From: Rhodanobacteraceae bacterium
Lineage (GTDB): Bacteria; Pseudomonadota; Gammaproteobacteria; Xanthomonadales; Rhodanobacteraceae
Length of the DNA: 64,000 nt
Assembly: GCA_009996615.1 (NCBI GenBank)
Contig: JAACZU010000002.1
Span: 144,045 to 208,044 of the forward strand
Direction of reading: 5' to 3'
The translations under genes were made by a program, and so were the position numbers. Shown here piece after piece: positions 51,979-61,183 of this stretch (its first letter is position 1; every line of letters starts with the position of its first letter). The notes below the pieces were generated by a model. That model was not told where the DNA came from and made no database searches. It saw only the letters and a program-made list of their open reading frames with translations.

Positions 51979-52446
51979 TCAGTCGCGCGGCCGCTGCGCC
52001 GCCGGCTCGCGCAGCGCTACAACGCCCAGCAGGCGCAACGTCGCGGCATCCGGCCGGCCACCGTAGTACACCGCCAGCGCGTCGCGGAAACGGCGCTCGG
52101 CCGGCGCGATCTCGGCGAACAGGGTCAGCGACGAGCGCAGCTTGAGCGCATCGACCTCGCCGAGGATGTCGTCGGCGTCGCGCCCGCGGTGGCGCAGCAG
52201 CGCATCGACGCACGCGAGCAGCCGTGGGCCGAGCAGCGGATGGGCGAGGTACGCCGCCGCCTCGTCCCGACCGGCGATGCCGTACTCCCAAGCCATCTCG
52301 CTGCGGCCGAGTCCGCGCAGTTGCGGAAACACGAACCACATCCAGTGCGACTCCTTGTGGCCGGCCTGCAGCTCGGCCAGGGCCTGGGCGTAGATCGGCG
52401 CCTGCGCGCGGACGAAGCGGTCGAGGTCGGAGGACGGTGGGGACAT
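51979..52446 (-). CDS. DUF1810 family protein
   Basis: A 155-residue soluble protein. DLDRFVRAQAPIYAQALAEL and the signature HKESHWMWFVFPQLRGLGRS are diagnostic of DUF1810. YGIAGRDEAAAYLAHPLLGP and LKLRSSLTLF follow. Family members are similar to macrodomain-associated proteins but their biochemistry is unsettled. ATG 52446 is chosen by homology. It is convergent with ltaE and divergent from the beta-helix gene. Confidence 0.88.
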   Translation of the reverse strand: MSPPSSDLDRFVRAQAPIYAQALAELQAGHKESHWMWFVFPQLRGLGRSEMAWEYGIAGRDEAAAYLAHPLLGPRLLACVDALLRHRGRDADDILGEVDALKLRSSLTLFAEIAPAERRFRDALAVYYGGRPDAATLRLLGVVALREPAAQRPRD

Positions 52447-52732
52447 GGCCAGATCCGAGCCGGGCGACGCGAGGGTACTGCTCGGCCACCGGTCCTGCCA
52501 GGTTCGGGCCGCGCGCGGCGGCGGGTAGGCGGGTCGCCGCGCCGGGCAAGCCGTCCCCGCGACACGCGAGCGCGGGCCCGGTCCGACGGCTTTCCCGGCC
52601 GCCGCATGTCGCATTTCGGGGCAAACCGGCGTTCCTCGCCGTTGCCCGAAATACGCGGCCGGTCCCCCGCTTCGACGCGAAGCCCGACGGCCTGCTCCGT
52701 ACCGACCACCCGAACCCTACCGGGAGAACGCC
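52447..52732. other. Divergent region holding an ECF-type promoter
   Basis: A 286-base gap between the DUF1810 gene (minus) and the beta-helix gene (plus). It contains one of the three shared promoter motifs at 52607-52633 and nothing that looks coding. The mRNA from that promoter would have a leader of about 90 bases. Confidence 0.6.
52607..52633 (+). promoter_or_regulatory. ECF-type promoter motif, site A
   Basis: TGTCGCATTT at 52607-52616, ten variable bases, CGGCGTT at 52627-52633. Identical spacing and bases occur at 57690-57716 and 60540-60566. The start of the beta-helix gene is 99 bases downstream. The layout resembles ECF sigma promoters with TGTC-type -35 and CGT-containing -10. 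Confidence 0.75.
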
Positions 52733-55096
52733 ATGCCGCACTTTCCGTTCCGACTCATCGGCCTCGCGCTCGTTGCGGCGTTCGGCGCCCCCGTGCAGGC
52801 CGCGATCTTCACCGTCGGCTCGCCGTCCGGACCGGGGCAGCCGTGCACGCACGGCACGATCCAGTCGGCCATCAATGCCGCCAACAGCGCGCCCGGCGCC
52901 GACACGATCCGCCTGACGCGTTCGCTGACCTACCAGCCGGAGGCGAACACGATCAACACCGCGCAGGAACTCACGATCGAAGGCGGCTACGCCACCTGCA
53001 CCTCGACCGCCGACACCACCAACACCGTCGTCAGCGGCACCGGCGGCGTGGCAGCGCCGGTGTTCACGATCAACGCGCCGACCGGCGCGCTGATCCGCCT
53101 GCGCCGCCTGACGATCAGCGGCGGTGATGTCGCCGGCGACGGCAAGGGCGGCGGCATCCGCTTCGAGGGCGACGGCACGCTGGAGATCCACGACAGCACG
53201 ATCAGCAACAACGTCGCCGGTTACGGCGGCGGCATCGCCGCCAGCGGCACCGGACCCAACGCGAAGCTGGTGATCGGCGCGAACGTGCTGGTTTCGGGCA
53301 ACACCGCGCCCTACGGCGGCGGCGGCATCTACGCGCACGAAATCGAAATGACGATGCGTGAACCTGGCAGCATGCTGTTCAACAACAAGGCCCTCGGCGT
53401 GAGCGGCAGCTTCGGATTCGGCGGCGGCCTGTACCTGCACGCCAATCATCGCGACACCACCGCCTTCATCGGCAGCAGCGGCGTGAACGGCCTCGGCGCG
53501 ATCTACGGCAACCAGGCGCGCTATGGCGGCGGCGCGGCGCTGGCCGGCTACAACAACGACATGGGTTCGATCCAGGACATCCGGCTGCACCTGTTCTCCA
53601 CCGATATCGCGCGCCGTGGCCGCATCGGCGGCAACAGCGCCACGGTCGCGGGCGGCGGCCTCTACGTGGAGGGCGACGCAGGCGCGTTCGACGGCGATAT
53701 CTTTTCCCTCGCCCATCTCTGGAACGCCGTCCTCGATGACAACTCCGCGCCGGAGGGCGCCGCGGTCCATCTGGGCGGCGACGGGTTCGCCCTGTTCGGA
53801 TTCAACACGACGAACAGCGCATCGCGGCCTTCCGGGGCCTTGCCGTGCTCGCCCGCGATCGGCGATTGCGGGCGCATCACCGGAAACAACACCGGGATTG
53901 GCGGCGGTGTCTACACCAACGGCGCGATCCTGCGCGGCGCGGCGGACTCCCCGCACATCATTATTGGCGAAACGACCTTCACCACGACCCCGGTCCTGCC
54001 GAAAGGTGGCGTCGTCATCCACGGCAACAAGGGCGGACGCCTGATCGAGATGGACAGTGTCGAAGCCAGCATCAATATTCACGACGCCCTGATCGCCGCG
54101 AACGAGTTCAGCCAGCAGGCGATGCGAATATCCGCCGGAGCGACCTTCGGGGGCATCCGGATGAGCGATACCACCCTGGCCGGAAACCTCATCGCCGGGA
54201 CGCACGTGCTGTCCACCGGCAGCACGGATGTCACGCTCGCGCGCTCGATCCTCTGGCAACCCGGCACGCAACTGCTGGCGCGCAGCGGCGGCACGTTGGT
54301 CACCGAGTTCGTGAACGTCAGCGACAACGTCGGCCTGCCCGGATATGCCTTCAACCCGCGCTTCGTCGATCCCGAACACGGCGACTACACCTTGCGCGCC
54401 GGGTCGCCGGCGATCGACCTCGCACCCGCCATCGCTGGCGACGACTTCGACGTGCTCGGCCTGTCGCGCGACGTGGACATGCCGATCAGGGTCAACTACC
54501 AAGGCCCACGCGACATCGGCGCGTTCGAACGGCAATCGCTGCAGCCGATGGTGCTGAACGGCGATTTCGATGCGCCGGACCTGCGTCTGTGGAATCCGGT
54601 CCTGGCCGGCGTCGCCACCCGCGACACCACGCAGAATGCCAGTGGCGCGGCCGGCTCGGCCTCGGCGCGCATCACGCGCACGAACCCGGCCAGCGGCCAG
54701 GAGACACGCGGCCTGTCGCAATGCATCCACCTGCCCGGCCCGGCCGTCTACGCACTCAACGGCTGGGGGCGCGGCACCGGCACGATGGTCCTCGCCGGCG
54801 ACTCGGCGCAGCTGCACTGGGAGTACCGCCGCAATGGCGGTGAGAACTGCACCGGCGCGCCGGACGCGTTCGGCGTGCATCACCTCAGCAGCACCAACGT
54901 CTGGAGCCGGCCCGCCGAGCCCAGCCTCATCGAGATCCCTGAAACCAGTTGGGGCAGCTCGCCTTCGATCACCATCACCTTGGTCGCCGTGGAGTTCGGC
55001 ACCGGAACGAGCGTCACCAACGCGTGGTTCGACGGCATCACGCTGGAGGCCCGGCCGCTCGACGACGGCATCTTCGCCAACGGCTTCGAGCCATGA
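52733..55096 (+). CDS. Exported beta-helix protein with jelly-roll-like C-terminal domain
   Basis: A 787-residue secreted protein. The signal peptide ends near PVQAA. Residues about 35-590 carry Gly-rich repeats such as GKGGGIRFEGDGTLEIHDST, ISNNVAGYGGGIAAS and NTAPYGGGGIYA, a right-handed beta-helix of the polymorphic-membrane-protein type. Residues about 605-787 start VLNGDFDAPDLRLW and form a galactose-binding-like or carbohydrate-binding-like domain closely related to the whole of the protein at 60608. The tail is DDGIFANGFEP. An ECF-type promoter lies upstream. Function is unknown; glycan or surface binding is inferred. Confidence 0.82.
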   Translation: MPHFPFRLIGLALVAAFGAPVQAAIFTVGSPSGPGQPCTHGTIQSAINAANSAPGADTIRLTRSLTYQPEANTINTAQELTIEGGYATCTSTADTTNTVVSGTGGVAAPVFTINAPTGALIRLRRLTISGGDVAGDGKGGGIRFEGDGTLEIHDSTISNNVAGYGGGIAASGTGPNAKLVIGANVLVSGNTAPYGGGGIYAHEIEMTMREPGSMLFNNKALGVSGSFGFGGGLYLHANHRDTTAFIGSSGVNGLGAIYGNQARYGGGAALAGYNNDMGSIQDIRLHLFSTDIARRGRIGGNSATVAGGGLYVEGDAGAFDGDIFSLAHLWNAVLDDNSAPEGAAVHLGGDGFALFGFNTTNSASRPSGALPCSPAIGDCGRITGNNTGIGGGVYTNGAILRGAADSPHIIIGETTFTTTPVLPKGGVVIHGNKGGRLIEMDSVEASINIHDALIAANEFSQQAMRISAGATFGGIRMSDTTLAGNLIAGTHVLSTGSTDVTLARSILWQPGTQLLARSGGTLVTEFVNVSDNVGLPGYAFNPRFVDPEHGDYTLRAGSPAIDLAPAIAGDDFDVLGLSRDVDMPIRVNYQGPRDIGAFERQSLQPMVLNGDFDAPDLRLWNPVLAGVATRDTTQNASGAAGSASARITRTNPASGQETRGLSQCIHLPGPAVYALNGWGRGTGTMVLAGDSAQLHWEYRRNGGENCTGAPDAFGVHHLSSTNVWSRPAEPSLIEIPETSWGSSPSITITLVAVEFGTGTSVTNAWFDGITLEARPLDDGIFANGFEP

Positions 55097-55223
55097 GCGC
55101 CGCTCCCGCTCCTCCTCGTCGCGCAACGGGGAGGGGATTTCCAGCGGGGAATGAGGTGATACTCCTCCCGCTGGAACCCGTAATGCGTGCCATCCCATCG
55201 ACCCGACCGCCGAGGAAGCACCC

Positions 55224-57035
55224 ATGAACCGATCCACTCCACGCGTCGCCGCCCTGGCCGTGGCGCTTGCCGGCGTCACCGGCGCCATCGCCCTGAAGCA
55301 GGGCGAAGCCGCCCTCACCGCGCCGGCGTTCGACCCGCTGCTCGATGGTCCCGGCGCGGTCTGCACGCCGGCCGCCGGCGGCCGTCCTCGCCTGCTGCAA
55401 ACGCTGGTGCTGGCGCAAGCCCAGACCCAAAAGGCCGAAACCAAGCCGTTTCCGCCGCAGCCGATGAAGGCCGCGGCCGGCACGCCGCCGCTCTACGGCA
55501 ACCTGGGTACCTTGAGCCTCAAGGCCGGCACGCGGAACGCCAAGGCGCAGGCGTATTTCGACCAGGGCCTGCGCTGGGCGTTCGCGTTCAACCATGCCGA
55601 GGCGCAGCGTGCGTTCCGCGCCGCGCAGCAGCAAGACCCGGCCTTCGCGCTGGCGCATTGGGGCGAGGCCTTCGTGCTGGGGCCGAACATCAATGCGCCG
55701 ATGCTGCCCGAAGCGGTCGCCCCGGCCTGGGCCGCGCTCGAGAAGGCGGTGGAACTCGCGCCCGCCGCGCCGGCCCGGGACCGCGCGCTGATCGCGGCGC
55801 TGCAGAAGCGCTATTCGCCCGATCCCGCCGCCGACCGCGCCATGCTCGACACCGCGTTCGCCGACGCGATGAAGGCGGCGGTCGCGCAGTTCCCCGACGA
55901 CGACACGCTCGCCACGCTGTACGCCGAAGCGGTCATGGACACGCAGCCGTGGGACTACTGGGAAGCGGCCGGCACGAAACCGAAAGGCCGTGCCGGCGAG
56001 ATCTTCTCGACGCTGGAAACCGTGCTGGCGCGCAATCCGGACCATCCGGGCGCGATCCATCTCTACATCCACGCGGTCGAATCCTCGGCCACGCCCGAAC
56101 GCGCGCTGCCGCACGCGCACCGGCTCGCCGCGCTGATGCCGGGCGCGGGGCACATCGTGCACATGCCGGCGCACATCTACTACCGCACCGGGCTGTTCCG
56201 CGAATCACTCGACATCAACAAGCGCGCGATGGCCGCCGACGAGGCATATTTCAAGACCTCGCCCTCGGACCCGCTGTACAAGTCGGCGTATTACCCGCAC
56301 AACATCCATTTCGTGCTGTTTTCCGCGCAGATGGGCGGCGATGGCGAGACGGCGATCGACGCCGCCGGCAAGCTCGATGCCTCGCTCGCCGACGAGACGG
56401 TCGCGCGCTATCCGCTGCTGGAGCCGATCAAGGCCGCGCCGTACCTCGCGCATGCGATTTTCAGCACGCCCGACACGATCCTCGCCTTGAAGGCGCCGCC
56501 GCAGAACCAGGTACTGGTGTCGGCGCTGGCGCACTATTCGCGCGCGCTCGGCTACGCGGCGAAGAAGGACGCCGAAGGCGCCGGCCGCGAAATCGCCGCG
56601 ATCGCGGCGCTGGAAAGCGGCGCCGACTTCAAGCCGTACGCGGACTGGTACGTGCCCGGCAAGGAGATCGTGCAGACCGCGCGCCTCGTCGCCAGCGCGC
56701 GGCTGGCCGACGCCCAGGGCGACCTCGCCGCCGCCGCGAAGGCCTACGAAGAGGCGATCGCGGTGGAGGACTCGCTGTCCTACATGGAGCCGCCGTACTG
56801 GTACTACCCGATCCGCCAGTCGCTCGGCTCGGTCCAGCTGCGCCAGGGCAAGCTCGATGCGGCCGAACAGACGCTGCGCGAGTCGCTGCTGCGCGTGCGC
56901 GGCAACGGCTGGGCGCTGGCCGGGCTGGCCGAGGTCTACAAGCGCAAGGGCGATACGGTCGAGGAGCAATCCGCCCGACGCGCCTGGAAGCGCGCGTGGC
57001 TCGGCAAGAGCGCACCCGACATCGAGCGGCTGTAG
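55224..57035 (+). CDS. TPR-rich exported protein
   Basis: A 603-residue protein with an N-terminal hydrophobic, signal-like segment (MNRSTPRVAALAVALAGVTGAIA) and about ten helical TPR-like repeats. Recognisable blocks are YFDQGLRWAFAFNHAEAQRA, HWGEAFVLGPNINAPML, DHPGAIHLYIHAVESSATPE and HMPAHIYYRTGLFRESLDIN. The His-rich AIHLYIHAVE and HIVHMPAHIYYR segments are a trait of this uncharacterised family. It lies between the beta-helix gene and the ECF sigma gene on the same strand but has no copy of the shared promoter. Function is unknown. Confidence 0.78.
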   Translation: MNRSTPRVAALAVALAGVTGAIALKQGEAALTAPAFDPLLDGPGAVCTPAAGGRPRLLQTLVLAQAQTQKAETKPFPPQPMKAAAGTPPLYGNLGTLSLKAGTRNAKAQAYFDQGLRWAFAFNHAEAQRAFRAAQQQDPAFALAHWGEAFVLGPNINAPMLPEAVAPAWAALEKAVELAPAAPARDRALIAALQKRYSPDPAADRAMLDTAFADAMKAAVAQFPDDDTLATLYAEAVMDTQPWDYWEAAGTKPKGRAGEIFSTLETVLARNPDHPGAIHLYIHAVESSATPERALPHAHRLAALMPGAGHIVHMPAHIYYRTGLFRESLDINKRAMAADEAYFKTSPSDPLYKSAYYPHNIHFVLFSAQMGGDGETAIDAAGKLDASLADETVARYPLLEPIKAAPYLAHAIFSTPDTILALKAPPQNQVLVSALAHYSRALGYAAKKDAEGAGREIAAIAALESGADFKPYADWYVPGKEIVQTARLVASARLADAQGDLAAAAKAYEEAIAVEDSLSYMEPPYWYYPIRQSLGSVQLRQGKLDAAEQTLRESLLRVRGNGWALAGLAEVYKRKGDTVEEQSARRAWKRAWLGKSAPDIERL

Positions 57036-57135
57036 CAACCTCGGGCCGGATGGACGCCCGTTTGCGCCGCCGGCGCCGACGCGACATGCTTGGCCCCGCC
57101 GCTGCGCCCGGGATGCGTGGCGGCGGGGAGGGGTC

Positions 57136-57684
57136 TTGACGCAAGACGCGATGCCCGGCGGCGCGGAAGTCCACGCGCCACGTTCGACCGACGCGATGTT
57201 CGACGCCGTCTACGCGCGGCTGAAGGCGATGGCCGGCTGCCAGCTCGCACGTGGACCGCGCGGCGCGACGCTCGACACCACGATGCTGGTGCACGAGCTC
57301 TACCTGCGCGTGAACGCGAACCGCGAACTCGTGTTCGAGCACGACGCGCAGTTCTTCGCCTACGCGGCGCAGGCGATGCGGCACCTGCTGCTCGACCGCG
57401 CGCGCGACCACCTGCGCCTGCATGCCGGCGGCGACTGGCTGCGCGTGACCTTGACCGGCAGCGACGAGGCGCTCGCGCTCGATGCCGCCGAACAGGCGCT
57501 CGCGCTCGATGCGGCGCTCGACCGGCTCGCCGCGACCGACGCGCGCGCGGCACGGGTCGTCGAGCTGCGCTATTTCGCCGGCCTGACGCTGGAGCAGATC
57601 GCCGGCATCCTCGGCCTGACCCGACGCACGGTCGACCGCGACTGGCGCTTCGCGCGCGCCTTCCTCAGGGCCGAGATCGAATAG
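57136..57684 (+). CDS. ECF sigma factor of the kinase-linked (Sig-70_X6/ECF43-like) type
   Basis: A 182-residue sigma factor. Region 2 contains TTMLVHELYLRVN (residues 48-60), where most ECF factors have acidic residues before LVQE. In kinase-linked ECF factors a Thr at this place is phosphorylated to activate the factor, and Thr48/Thr49 are candidates here. Region 4 has LRYFAGLTLEQIAGILGLTR then RTVDRDWRFARAFLRAEI. The TTG at 57136 has GGGGAGGGG before it; ATG 57151 is an alternative. A Ser/Thr kinase gene follows after 68 bases. No anti-sigma gene is present. Confidence 0.88.
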   Translation: MTQDAMPGGAEVHAPRSTDAMFDAVYARLKAMAGCQLARGPRGATLDTTMLVHELYLRVNANRELVFEHDAQFFAYAAQAMRHLLLDRARDHLRLHAGGDWLRVTLTGSDEALALDAAEQALALDAALDRLAATDARAARVVELRYFAGLTLEQIAGILGLTRRTVDRDWRFARAFLRAEIE

Positions 57685-57689
57685 CCGCG

Positions 57690-57716
57690 TGTCGCATTTC
57701 GCGCCGCGGCGGCGTT
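57690..57716 (+). promoter_or_regulatory. ECF-type promoter motif, site B
   Basis: TGTCGCATTT at 57690-57699, ten bases, CGGCGTT at 57710-57716. It begins six bases after the ECF sigma stop codon and ends 36 bases before the kinase start, so the kinase has its own promoter that the sigma factor may drive. Confidence 0.75.
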
Positions 57717-57752
57717 GTACGGCGCGGATCCAGTCCAGCAGGGGCGCGCCTC

Positions 57753-60518
<2,766 letters not shown>

Positions 60519-60539
60519 CGTTCGACCCGCGCGGTCGCA

Positions 60540-60566
60540 TGTCGCATTTGCGCACGTGGCGGCGTT
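60540..60566 (+). promoter_or_regulatory. ECF-type promoter motif, site C
   Basis: TGTCGCATTT at 60540-60549, ten bases, CGGCGTT at 60560-60566, ending 41 bases before the start at 60608. Beyond the core it also shares CTCGCCG with site A. Confidence 0.75.
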
Positions 60567-60607: not shown

Positions 60608-61183
60608 ATGAAGCGCCGTTCGAAGAATGTCCTGCTACGCGTCCTCGCCGCCCTGCTGCTGGCGCCGGCCTCGCCGATGGCGCAGAACCTCATCGTCAAT
60701 GGCGATTTCGACACGGGCCTCGACGGCTGGGAGTTCCCCGACGCGACGCCGGCGTGGTCGCCGCTCGATGCGGGTGATTCGGCGCAGTCCGGCTCTGCGC
60801 ATGGCGTCAACATGAGTACGAGCGGGCGCGTCTGCGTGCTGCGCCAATGCGTCGCGCTGCCGCGCTCCGGCCGGCAGGTGCTGAGCGTGTGGGCGTATAC
60901 GCCGCCGGGCCAGGGCCTCGGCAACCTGGTGCTCAGCTATACCGCGCGGCGCAACGCGCCCGATTGCACCGGCGGCAGCTTTGCCAGTGGCGGCACCTAT
61001 TTGCCGAGCGTCGGGGCCTGGACCTACCACGCGCTGTCCGTCCCGGTGGACGACCCGCCCGCGCCCGACACCACCGTCGACGTGCGCCTGTGCGTCGACC
61101 CCGCACGGCAGGTCGGCTTCGGCGGGCACTTCGACCGCGTGCGCCTCGTCCCGGACGTCATCTTCCGCGACGGAACGGACTGA
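60608..61183 (+). CDS. Small secreted jelly-roll-like protein
   Basis: A 191-residue exported protein, signal peptide cleaved near PMA/QN (residue 25). Mature part starts LIVNGDFDTGLDGWEF, the classical opening of carbohydrate-binding or galactose-binding-like modules, with CVLRQCVALP and a CTGG motif whose cysteines may pair. It aligns along its length with the C-terminal domain of the protein at 52733-55096. The tail is VIFRDGTD, a variant of the IFxxGF tail. GGGAGGA lies seven bases before ATG 60608. Its promoter copy suggests control by the upstream ECF factor. Ligand unknown. Confidence 0.8.
   Translation: MKRRSKNVLLRVLAALLLAPASPMAQNLIVNGDFDTGLDGWEFPDATPAWSPLDAGDSAQSGSAHGVNMSTSGRVCVLRQCVALPRSGRQVLSVWAYTPPGQGLGNLVLSYTARRNAPDCTGGSFASGGTYLPSVGAWTYHALSVPVDDPPAPDTTVDVRLCVDPARQVGFGGHFDRVRLVPDVIFRDGTD

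What the first reader, a model, noticed from the sequence alone, without database searches (positions are those of the whole stretch)
52607..60566. Three identical-spacing promoter motifs define a probable ECF regulon
TGTCGCATTT, exactly ten non-conserved bases, then CGGCGTT occurs at 52607, 57690 and 60540, each in a gap and each on the strand of the next gene. All 17 fixed bases match in all three. The genes are a secreted beta-helix protein, a Ser/Thr kinase and a small secreted protein, and an ECF sigma gene lies between. TGTC-type -35 and CGT-containing -10 elements are known for several ECF groups. That this sigma drives these promoters is inference.
Basis: partly seen in the sequence, partly recalled or inferred. 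Interest (0 to 1): 0.88.

Follow-up and report, generated by a model that had tools for sequence, protein, structure and literature searches.

The report
Kinase-linked sigma factor's private promoter
Three matching promoter signals in a Dokdonella-type bacterium mark a small, probably self-amplifying switch, in which a membrane kinase is thought to turn on its partner sigma factor, which then makes more of the kinase and secreted, carbohydrate-binding-like proteins.

Summary
TGTCGCATTT-N10-CGGCGTT occurs at 52607, 57690 and 60540, and nowhere else in the 3.9 Mb genome. A slightly relaxed form gives a fourth perfect site on another contig, upstream of the genome's only other beta-helix homologue.

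The genus is most likely Dokdonella. Among 44 related sigma loci, the core TGTCGCA-N13-CGGCGTT lies between sigma and kinase genes within 2 mismatches in 25, against 0 of 33 more distant sigma loci and at most 1 for 200 permuted motifs. It recurs downstream on the same strand, mostly just after the kinase gene, in 27 of 40 (opposite strand 2). In one genome where the kinase sits 3.7 kb away, the site is with the kinase.

Motif variants are shared within loci, and -35 base 3 covaries with sigma4 residue 167, though on only about two independent events.

The sigma is ECF43-like. The kinase's best solved match is PknS, which phosphorylates EcfK. Most likely the kinase activates the sigma, which transcribes the kinase (positive feedback) and secreted beta-helix/CBM-like proteins. 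Recognition is strongly supported; phosphorylation and transcription are inferred. ECF43 systems are known; my searches found no published promoter or output of this kind.

The parts
52607..52633 (+). promoter-like site P1 (TGTCGCATTT-N10-CGGCGTT) before the beta-helix gene
   Evidence: exact match; 99 nt to ATG
52733..55096 (+). secreted beta-helix protein, 787 aa: N-terminal hydrophobic (signal-like) segment, beta-helix, CBM-like jelly roll, C-terminal IFANGFEP
   Evidence: homologues follow second sites in relatives
55224..57035 (+). 603-aa protein with weak TPR matches and an N-terminal hydrophobic segment, possibly co-transcribed; role in the circuit unknown
   Evidence: 88% identical orthologue next to the sigma in L079
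57136..57684 (+). ECF sigma factor, TTG start after GGAGGGG, 182 aa, TIGR02999
57280..57282 (+). codon of Thr49 in region 2.2 (LDTTML), counterpart of the phosphothreonine of ECF43 sigmas
   Evidence: invariant in 12 of 12 rows; family motif in passages of PMC13147305
57634..57636 (+). codon of Asp167 in the predicted sigma4 recognition helix, covaries with -35 position 3
57690..57716 (+). promoter-like site P2 before the kinase gene
   Evidence: exact match; conserved in relatives
57753..60518 (+). transmembrane Hanks-type Ser/Thr kinase with C-terminal TPR repeats, 921 aa, intact VALK, HRDLKP and DFG motifs, one hydrophobic segment at 375-393
60540..60566 (+). promoter-like site P3 before the small secreted gene
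   Evidence: exact match; a similar position relative to sigma carries a site in relatives
60608..61183 (+). small secreted protein, 191 aa, homologue of the C-terminal CBM-like domain of the beta-helix protein

Best explanation
TGTCGCA-N16-CGTT (seen here as TGTCGCATTT-N10-CGGCGTT) is the promoter read by the ECF43-like sigma factor encoded at 57136-57684. The sigma lacks the usual acidic region-2.2 motif and is probably inactive until the membrane kinase encoded next to it phosphorylates Thr49 and perhaps linker residues. The active sigma then transcribes the kinase gene from P2 (positive feedback on the activator, not directly on the sigma), the beta-helix/CBM-like secreted protein from P1, the single-domain CBM-like secreted protein from P3, and in trans a second beta-helix gene on contig C19. 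Shown: the sites, their fixed geometry, conservation, restriction to one sigma clade and variation in step with the sigma. Inferred: transcription itself, phosphorylation, and the signal, perhaps an envelope or surface condition sensed by the C-terminal (by analogy with PknS, periplasmic) TPR part of the kinase.
For: Genome-wide exact sites 3, all local. Relaxed pattern TGTCGC-N14-CGGYGTT: 4 perfect sites, the fourth before the only other beta-helix homologue; 38 further sites with one mismatch, against 38 for the reversed control. In relatives: gap site within 0/1/2/3 mismatches in 9/18/25/33 of 44 sigma-clade loci versus 0/0/0/1 of 33 outside; downstream (1.5-5.5 kb) within 0/1/2 mismatches in 5/17/27 of 40 on the same strand versus 0/0/2 on the opposite strand; 200 permuted motifs at 2 mismatches: gap at most 1, downstream mean 0.85, at most 9; gap sites within 1 mismatch 18 at spacing 13 and 0-1 at each other spacing from 8 to 18. 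30 motif-bearing sigmas (window included) all fall in one 44-row set of a 79-row tree, SH-aLRT 95. Displaced kinase has the site directly before it (L086/L109, one organism). Within-locus sharing of non-consensus letters 9 versus 1.68 shuffled, n=25. Residue 167 x -35 base 3: D+T 25, D+other 2, non-D+T 0, non-D+other 8, top of 1161 pairs; downstream sites 20/7/0/8. Residue 167 lies in the predicted helix 163-181. Kinase's best PDB match is 9eed, PknS 1-364 of X. citri, over residues 10-349.
Against: No transcript or protein data. 11 of 44 clade loci have no gap site within 3 mismatches (L109, with its displaced kinase, is one of them), and 14 of the 44 tree rows are motif-negative, so that the label needs 12 changes on the tree (24.3 when shuffled). 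The covariation rests on one or two independent contrasts, too few for a sign test, and its p-values are not corrected for kinship; two Asp167 loci (L122, L140) have a G at base 3 of the kinase site. At 3 mismatches the opposite strand also gives 17 of 40 downstream hits against 33. Signal and output function are unknown. Membership in ECF43 could not be tested with the group's own model.
Confidence: 0.83

Rival explanations
1. The motif is a promoter, but of another sigma factor (one of the six other TIGR02999 paralogues or another ECF sigma); the neighbouring sigma gene is only a neighbour.
For: The genome holds seven TIGR02999 sigmas over the cut-off, and cross-recognition among ECF sigmas is known (general knowledge).
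Against: The motif is found next to this sigma clade and, within 2 mismatches, next to 0 of 33 more distant relatives. Motif variants are shared within a locus and go with sigma4 residue 167, with the kinship caveat.
Confidence: 0.08
2. The motif is an operator for a transcription factor, not a promoter.
For: Conserved upstream elements are often operators (general knowledge). I did not search the loci systematically for other regulator genes.
Against: Two non-palindromic halves with one fixed spacing, pointing at the gene, and ending 14 nt or less before ATG in 18 of 31 kinase sites and 34-46 nt before ATG in 16 of 25 second sites. The geometry is that of the ECF41 promoter TGTCACA-n16-CGTC.
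Confidence: 0.05
3. A mobile or repeated DNA element copied between the three gaps.
For: Three identical 17-base patterns within 8 kb.
Against: Spacer letters differ and the identical run is confined to the motif and a few bases before it; no other exact copy in the genome, and the one perfect relaxed copy is before a homologous gene; conserved by position across genera.
Confidence: 0.01

Closest known systems
ECF43 sigma / Hanks kinase pairs: EcfK-PknS (Xanthomonas citri), EcfP-PknT (Vibrio parahaemolyticus)
   Same: ECF sigma beside a transmembrane kinase with C-terminal TPRs and an N-terminal stretch of about 83 residues before the kinase domain; TT motif in place of DAED in region 2.2; Ser/Thr in the sigma2-sigma4 linker. 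Kinase best PDB hit is PknS itself.
   Different: Known outputs are a type VI secretion system and polymyxin resistance. Here the putative output is secreted beta-helix/CBM-like proteins, with a defined promoter motif in front of the kinase gene. The passages I saw of the EcfK paper (12 of 23 places shown) name no promoter consensus.
ECF41 sigma promoters (TGTCACA-n16-CGTC)
   Same: Almost the same bipartite promoter and spacing; targets next to the sigma gene (passages of PMC3426412).
   Different: ECF41 has a C-terminal regulatory extension and COE-gene targets; this sigma ends after sigma4 and its neighbour is a kinase.
Rhombotarget A, phage tailspikes and CBM16/CBM4 modules (structure matches of the beta-helix protein)
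   Same: Beta-helix part resembles tailspikes and Rhombotarget A weakly; C-terminal domain resembles CBM16, TM-score to target 0.68-0.73.
   Different: Low TM-scores on the whole query (0.13-0.23); no sequence family hit above a curated cut-off.

Membership tests
ECF43 | ECF sigma of the sigma2-sigma4 type in the TIGR02999/Sigma70_ECF family | tested here: met
   TIGR02999 167.9 bits, cut-off 126.15; PF07638 130.7 bits. That ECF43 falls in TIGR02999 is recalled, from no call.
ECF43 | Hanks-type kinase gene next to the sigma | tested here: met
   kinase ATG after a 68-bp gap, best PDB match PknS 9eed
ECF43 | DAED of region 2.2 replaced by a QTTA-type motif with conserved Thr | tested here: met
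   LDTTML; Thr49 invariant in 12 of 12. One acid, Asp47, is kept, also 12 of 12. Definition from passages of PMC13147305
ECF43 | group model of the ECF reclassification | not testable with these tools
   model not held; the paper asked for by its DOI is not in the library
ECF43 | activation by phosphorylation | not testable with these tools
   needs experiment
ECF41 | C-terminal regulatory domain after sigma4 | tested here: not met
   protein ends at residue 182, helix 163-181 is the last element
ECF41 | promoter TGTCACA-n16-CGTC | tested here: inconclusive
   TGTCGCA-n16-CGTT: same spacing, two letters different

The most novel reading that the evidence does not exclude
The module is a closed surface-sensing loop: the secreted beta-helix/CBM-like proteins act outside or in the periplasm, their state is read back by the kinase's C-terminal TPR domain, and the kinase controls its own amount through the sigma it phosphorylates. 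Across Rhodanobacteraceae and kin the sigma and its promoter have switched specificity together through residue 167 of the recognition helix, a readable sigma-promoter code.
Probability: 0.22. Interest if true: 0.78.

Novelty: new variant of a known kind. Interest (0 to 1): 0.62.

Why it matters
Kinase-associated sigmas of this kind are numerous here: seven TIGR02999 sigmas in this genome, and relatives of the window sigma at E <= 0.001 are more numerous than its 8 in 10 of the 15 congeners searched. I found no promoter consensus for them in the papers I could search. A motif this sharp makes one subgroup's regulons readable from sequence. It shows an architecture in which the kinase rather than the sigma carries the conserved autoregulatory site, and it offers a testable link between a recognition-helix residue and a -35 base.

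Tried and rejected
Exact 17-base pattern across 233 family genomes: only the three own sites and one in G216; the TTT after TGTCGCA is not conserved in the relatives' sites, so the 14-base core was used afterwards. The 14-base core with up to one mismatch over 16 whole genomes of the genus gives 85 sites against 53 for the reversed control (my sums), too weak an excess to use as evidence by itself; of 30 such sites fetched, 20 were flagged inside a coding-like frame, among them three that stand in sigma-kinase gaps, so that flag is crude. The viral-contig scan found no relative of the sigma. Sigma-70 promoter and terminator scans of the locus were at chance, so operon read-through from P1 into the TPR and sigma genes stays open; the RNA of the gap after the beta-helix gene folds with z -1.32 and its long hairpin has no T-run. 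Independent-pairs test for residue 167 had only 1-2 pairs. In one search two of the six rows (L122, L111) were given out of frame and are ignored. PHROGs gave no hit for the two secreted proteins. The sigma alone had no PDB match, and its profile only weak ones. Two papers asked for by DOI, on the ECF reclassification and on EcfP, were not held.

Rows dropped before counts: of the 80 loci, 44 form the clade and 33 the outside set; L144, L148 and L149 were left out (too little flank or partial). L153, whose reading frame is broken, was kept and left out. For L109 the kinase site was taken at the displaced kinase by a range set by hand. One search uses 35 of 45 aligned rows for kinase sites and one search uses 25 of 45; the others had no site within 3 mismatches or too little sequence. 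The clade was set by identity to the window sigma (60% or more), before the tree.

Full report
Observation. The pattern TGTCGCATTT-N10-CGGCGTT is present without mismatch at 52607, 57690 and 60540 on the + strand, and none of 100 dinucleotide shuffles of the window held three sites even at 3 mismatches. The window is G000:C2:144045-208044 of a 3.91 Mb genome; the exact pattern occurs in it at these three places only, with a reversed-pattern control of 0. Each site lies before a gene on its own strand: beta-helix protein 52733-55096, kinase 57753-60518, small secreted protein 60608-61183. P1 lies in a gap only if the DUF1810 gene on the other strand starts at 52446, as I assume; its longest frame would reach 52614. 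The ECF sigma gene is at 57136-57684, with a TTG start after GGAGGGG, and five bases separate its stop from P2.

Organism. Contig lengths of congeners G028, G029, G036, G037 and G038 equal those of named Dokdonella records, so the window's genus is most likely Dokdonella (Rhodanobacteraceae; the family is named in passages of PMC6653060).

Proteins. The sigma scores 167.9 bits against TIGR02999 (cut-off 126.15). The kinase has intact VALK, HRDLKP and DFG motifs, one hydrophobic segment at 375-393 and C-terminal TPRs. Its best solved match is 9eed, over residues 10-349, that is with the stretch before the kinase domain; 9EED is the deposited structure of PknS of Xanthomonas citri (passages of PMC13147305). 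The beta-helix protein was modelled at mean pLDDT 82, pTM 0.81. Foldseek finds phage tailspikes and Rhombotarget A at low TM-score for the helix, and CBM16 for the C-terminal domain at TM-score to target 0.68-0.73. The small secreted protein matches that C-terminal domain in relatives and is 32% identical to it in the window. Both secreted proteins have N-terminal hydrophobic segments.

Genome-wide regulon. Relaxing to TGTCGC-N14-CGGYGTT gives four perfect sites in the genome: the three and C19:51523. Another 38 sites have one mismatch, against 38 for the reversed control. The C19 site stands 126 nt before the ATG of a second beta-helix protein. A protein search at E <= 0.001 finds exactly two beta-helix homologues in the genome, the local one and this one. 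Two independent searches therefore meet at the same unlinked gene, which makes it a likely target in trans.

Conservation. The sigma alignment brought 80 named loci. I split them by identity to the window sigma: 44 at 60% or more with enough flank, 33 under 55%, 3 left out. With the core TGTCGCA-N13-CGGCGTT, the sigma-kinase gap (-40 to +120 of the sigma stop) holds a site within 0/1/2/3 mismatches in 9/18/25/33 of 44, against 0/0/0/1 of 33. Between 1.5 and 5.5 kb downstream, same-strand sites within 0/1/2/3 mismatches occur in 5/17/27/33 of 40, opposite-strand sites in 0/0/2/17. With 200 permuted motifs at 2 mismatches the gap count never exceeded 1, and the downstream count had mean 0.85, at most 9. 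Gap sites within 1 mismatch number 18 at spacing 13 and 0 or 1 at each other spacing from 8 to 18. The second site lies mostly about 2.8-3.1 kb after the sigma stop, just past the kinase gene, often before a beta-helix homologue (16 long frames) and in Rhodanobacter and kin before a different protein. L119 has three perfect sites, like the window; L106 and L129 have two. In L086/L109 (one organism) the kinase lies 3.7 kb from the sigma and a site with one mismatch lies directly before the kinase. None of 45 loci has a site within 2 mismatches in the stretch before the sigma gene (-1000 to -480 of its stop). Because relatives overlap in organism with those, only the set is counted.

Shape. Across 62 sites (34 gap, 28 second, chosen at 3 mismatches or fewer, which inflates conservation somewhat), GTT of the -10 is invariant, and TG.C and CGGC are strong. 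Second sites also carry C (27 of 28) and G (23 of 28) four and five bases after the motif, near the expected start point. ATG follows at 14 nt or less in 18 of 31 kinase sites, so many kinase messages may be nearly leaderless, and at 34-46 nt in 16 of 25 second sites. The form TGTCGCA-n16-CGTT is close to the published ECF41 promoter TGTCACA-n16-CGTC (passages of PMC3426412).

Link to the sigma. A 79-row sigma tree puts all 30 motif-bearing rows (gap site within 2 or downstream site within 1 mismatch) in one 44-row set (SH-aLRT 95); 14 rows of that set are negative at these cut-offs, and the label needs 12 changes on the tree against 24.3 when shuffled. In 25 loci with both sites, the two sites of a locus share 9 non-consensus letters against 1.68 on shuffling, 0 of 20000 shuffles as high, uncorrected for kinship. 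Site choice blind to -35 base 3 gives, at kinase sites, Asp167 with T 25, Asp167 with other 2, other residue with T 0, other with other 8 (Fisher 1.9e-6, first of 1161 residue-base pairs); at second sites 20, 7, 0, 8 (p 2.7e-4). Residue 167 is in the predicted helix 163-181 and aligns with the Lys of the TVKSR stretch of SigL (E 0.038, weak). That it corresponds to R171 of E. coli sigma-E is my own alignment from recall; R171 contacts the -35 element (passages of PMC6713349). The caveat is serious: the tree allows only one or two independent contrasts, and no sign test.

Mechanism. In ECF43 sigmas a threonine in region 2.2 replaces the acidic motif and is phosphorylated by the neighbouring kinase; EcfK also needs a linker threonine (passages of PMC13147305 and PMC8999054; abstract). 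This sigma has LDTTML with Thr49 invariant in 12 of 12, and a largely conserved linker TLTGSD. I infer that the kinase activates the sigma, that the sigma makes more kinase, and that the output is the secreted proteins. The signal is unknown. PknS's TPR part is periplasmic in the X. citri paper (passage), so an envelope or surface cue is plausible.

What is new. Searches of the library for ECF43, EcfP, EcfK and promoter terms and Dokdonella with sigma factor gave listings, and in five papers passages, none of which names this promoter or this output. Two key papers are not held, so a prediction of an ECF43 motif there cannot be excluded.

Verdict. It is a new variant of a known kind of system.

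Noticed in passing
whole genome G000; window 55073-55093: A motif [IV]Fx[DN]GF[DE], or a near variant, ends the beta-helix proteins of these loci. Its DNA pattern occurs 53 times in the genome against 1 for the reversed control, and in 21 of the 30 fetched cases it lies within 10 residues of a C-terminus, possibly an undescribed C-terminal sorting tag.
   Followed up: partly
G000 C19:51352-58804 (L004): The trans target lies among further matches to the IFxDGFE pattern (51352, 55333, 58785), one of them ending the gene just upstream of its promoter site.
   Followed up: no
L012-L018: The genome has seven TIGR02999 sigmas over the cut-off. After the stop of several others (L012, L013, L014, L015) what looks like the kinase frame begins at once, leaving little room for such a promoter (frames judged by eye).
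   Followed up: partly
L118, L128, L132 (two Rhodanobacter and one unnamed proteobacterium): The second promoter site precedes a different gene of about 490-500 aa ending in LVAFLSAL, so the output gene may have been exchanged while the promoter stayed.
   Followed up: no
L052 (G029:C1:184008): An unlinked site with one mismatch in a D. fugitiva genome stands before a frame with a signal-like N-terminus, a possible further trans target.
   Followed up: no
55139-55176: A strong hairpin (CCAGCGGGG...CCTCCCGCTGG) without a T-run follows the beta-helix gene.
   Followed up: partly
L138, L139 (Chiayiivirga flava): Two related sigmas lie about 10 kb apart on opposite strands of one contig; one has a perfect site 3 kb upstream of its stop, before another protein with a signal-like N-terminus.
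   Followed up: no
L153: A sigma locus with a broken reading frame; left as it is.
   Followed up: no
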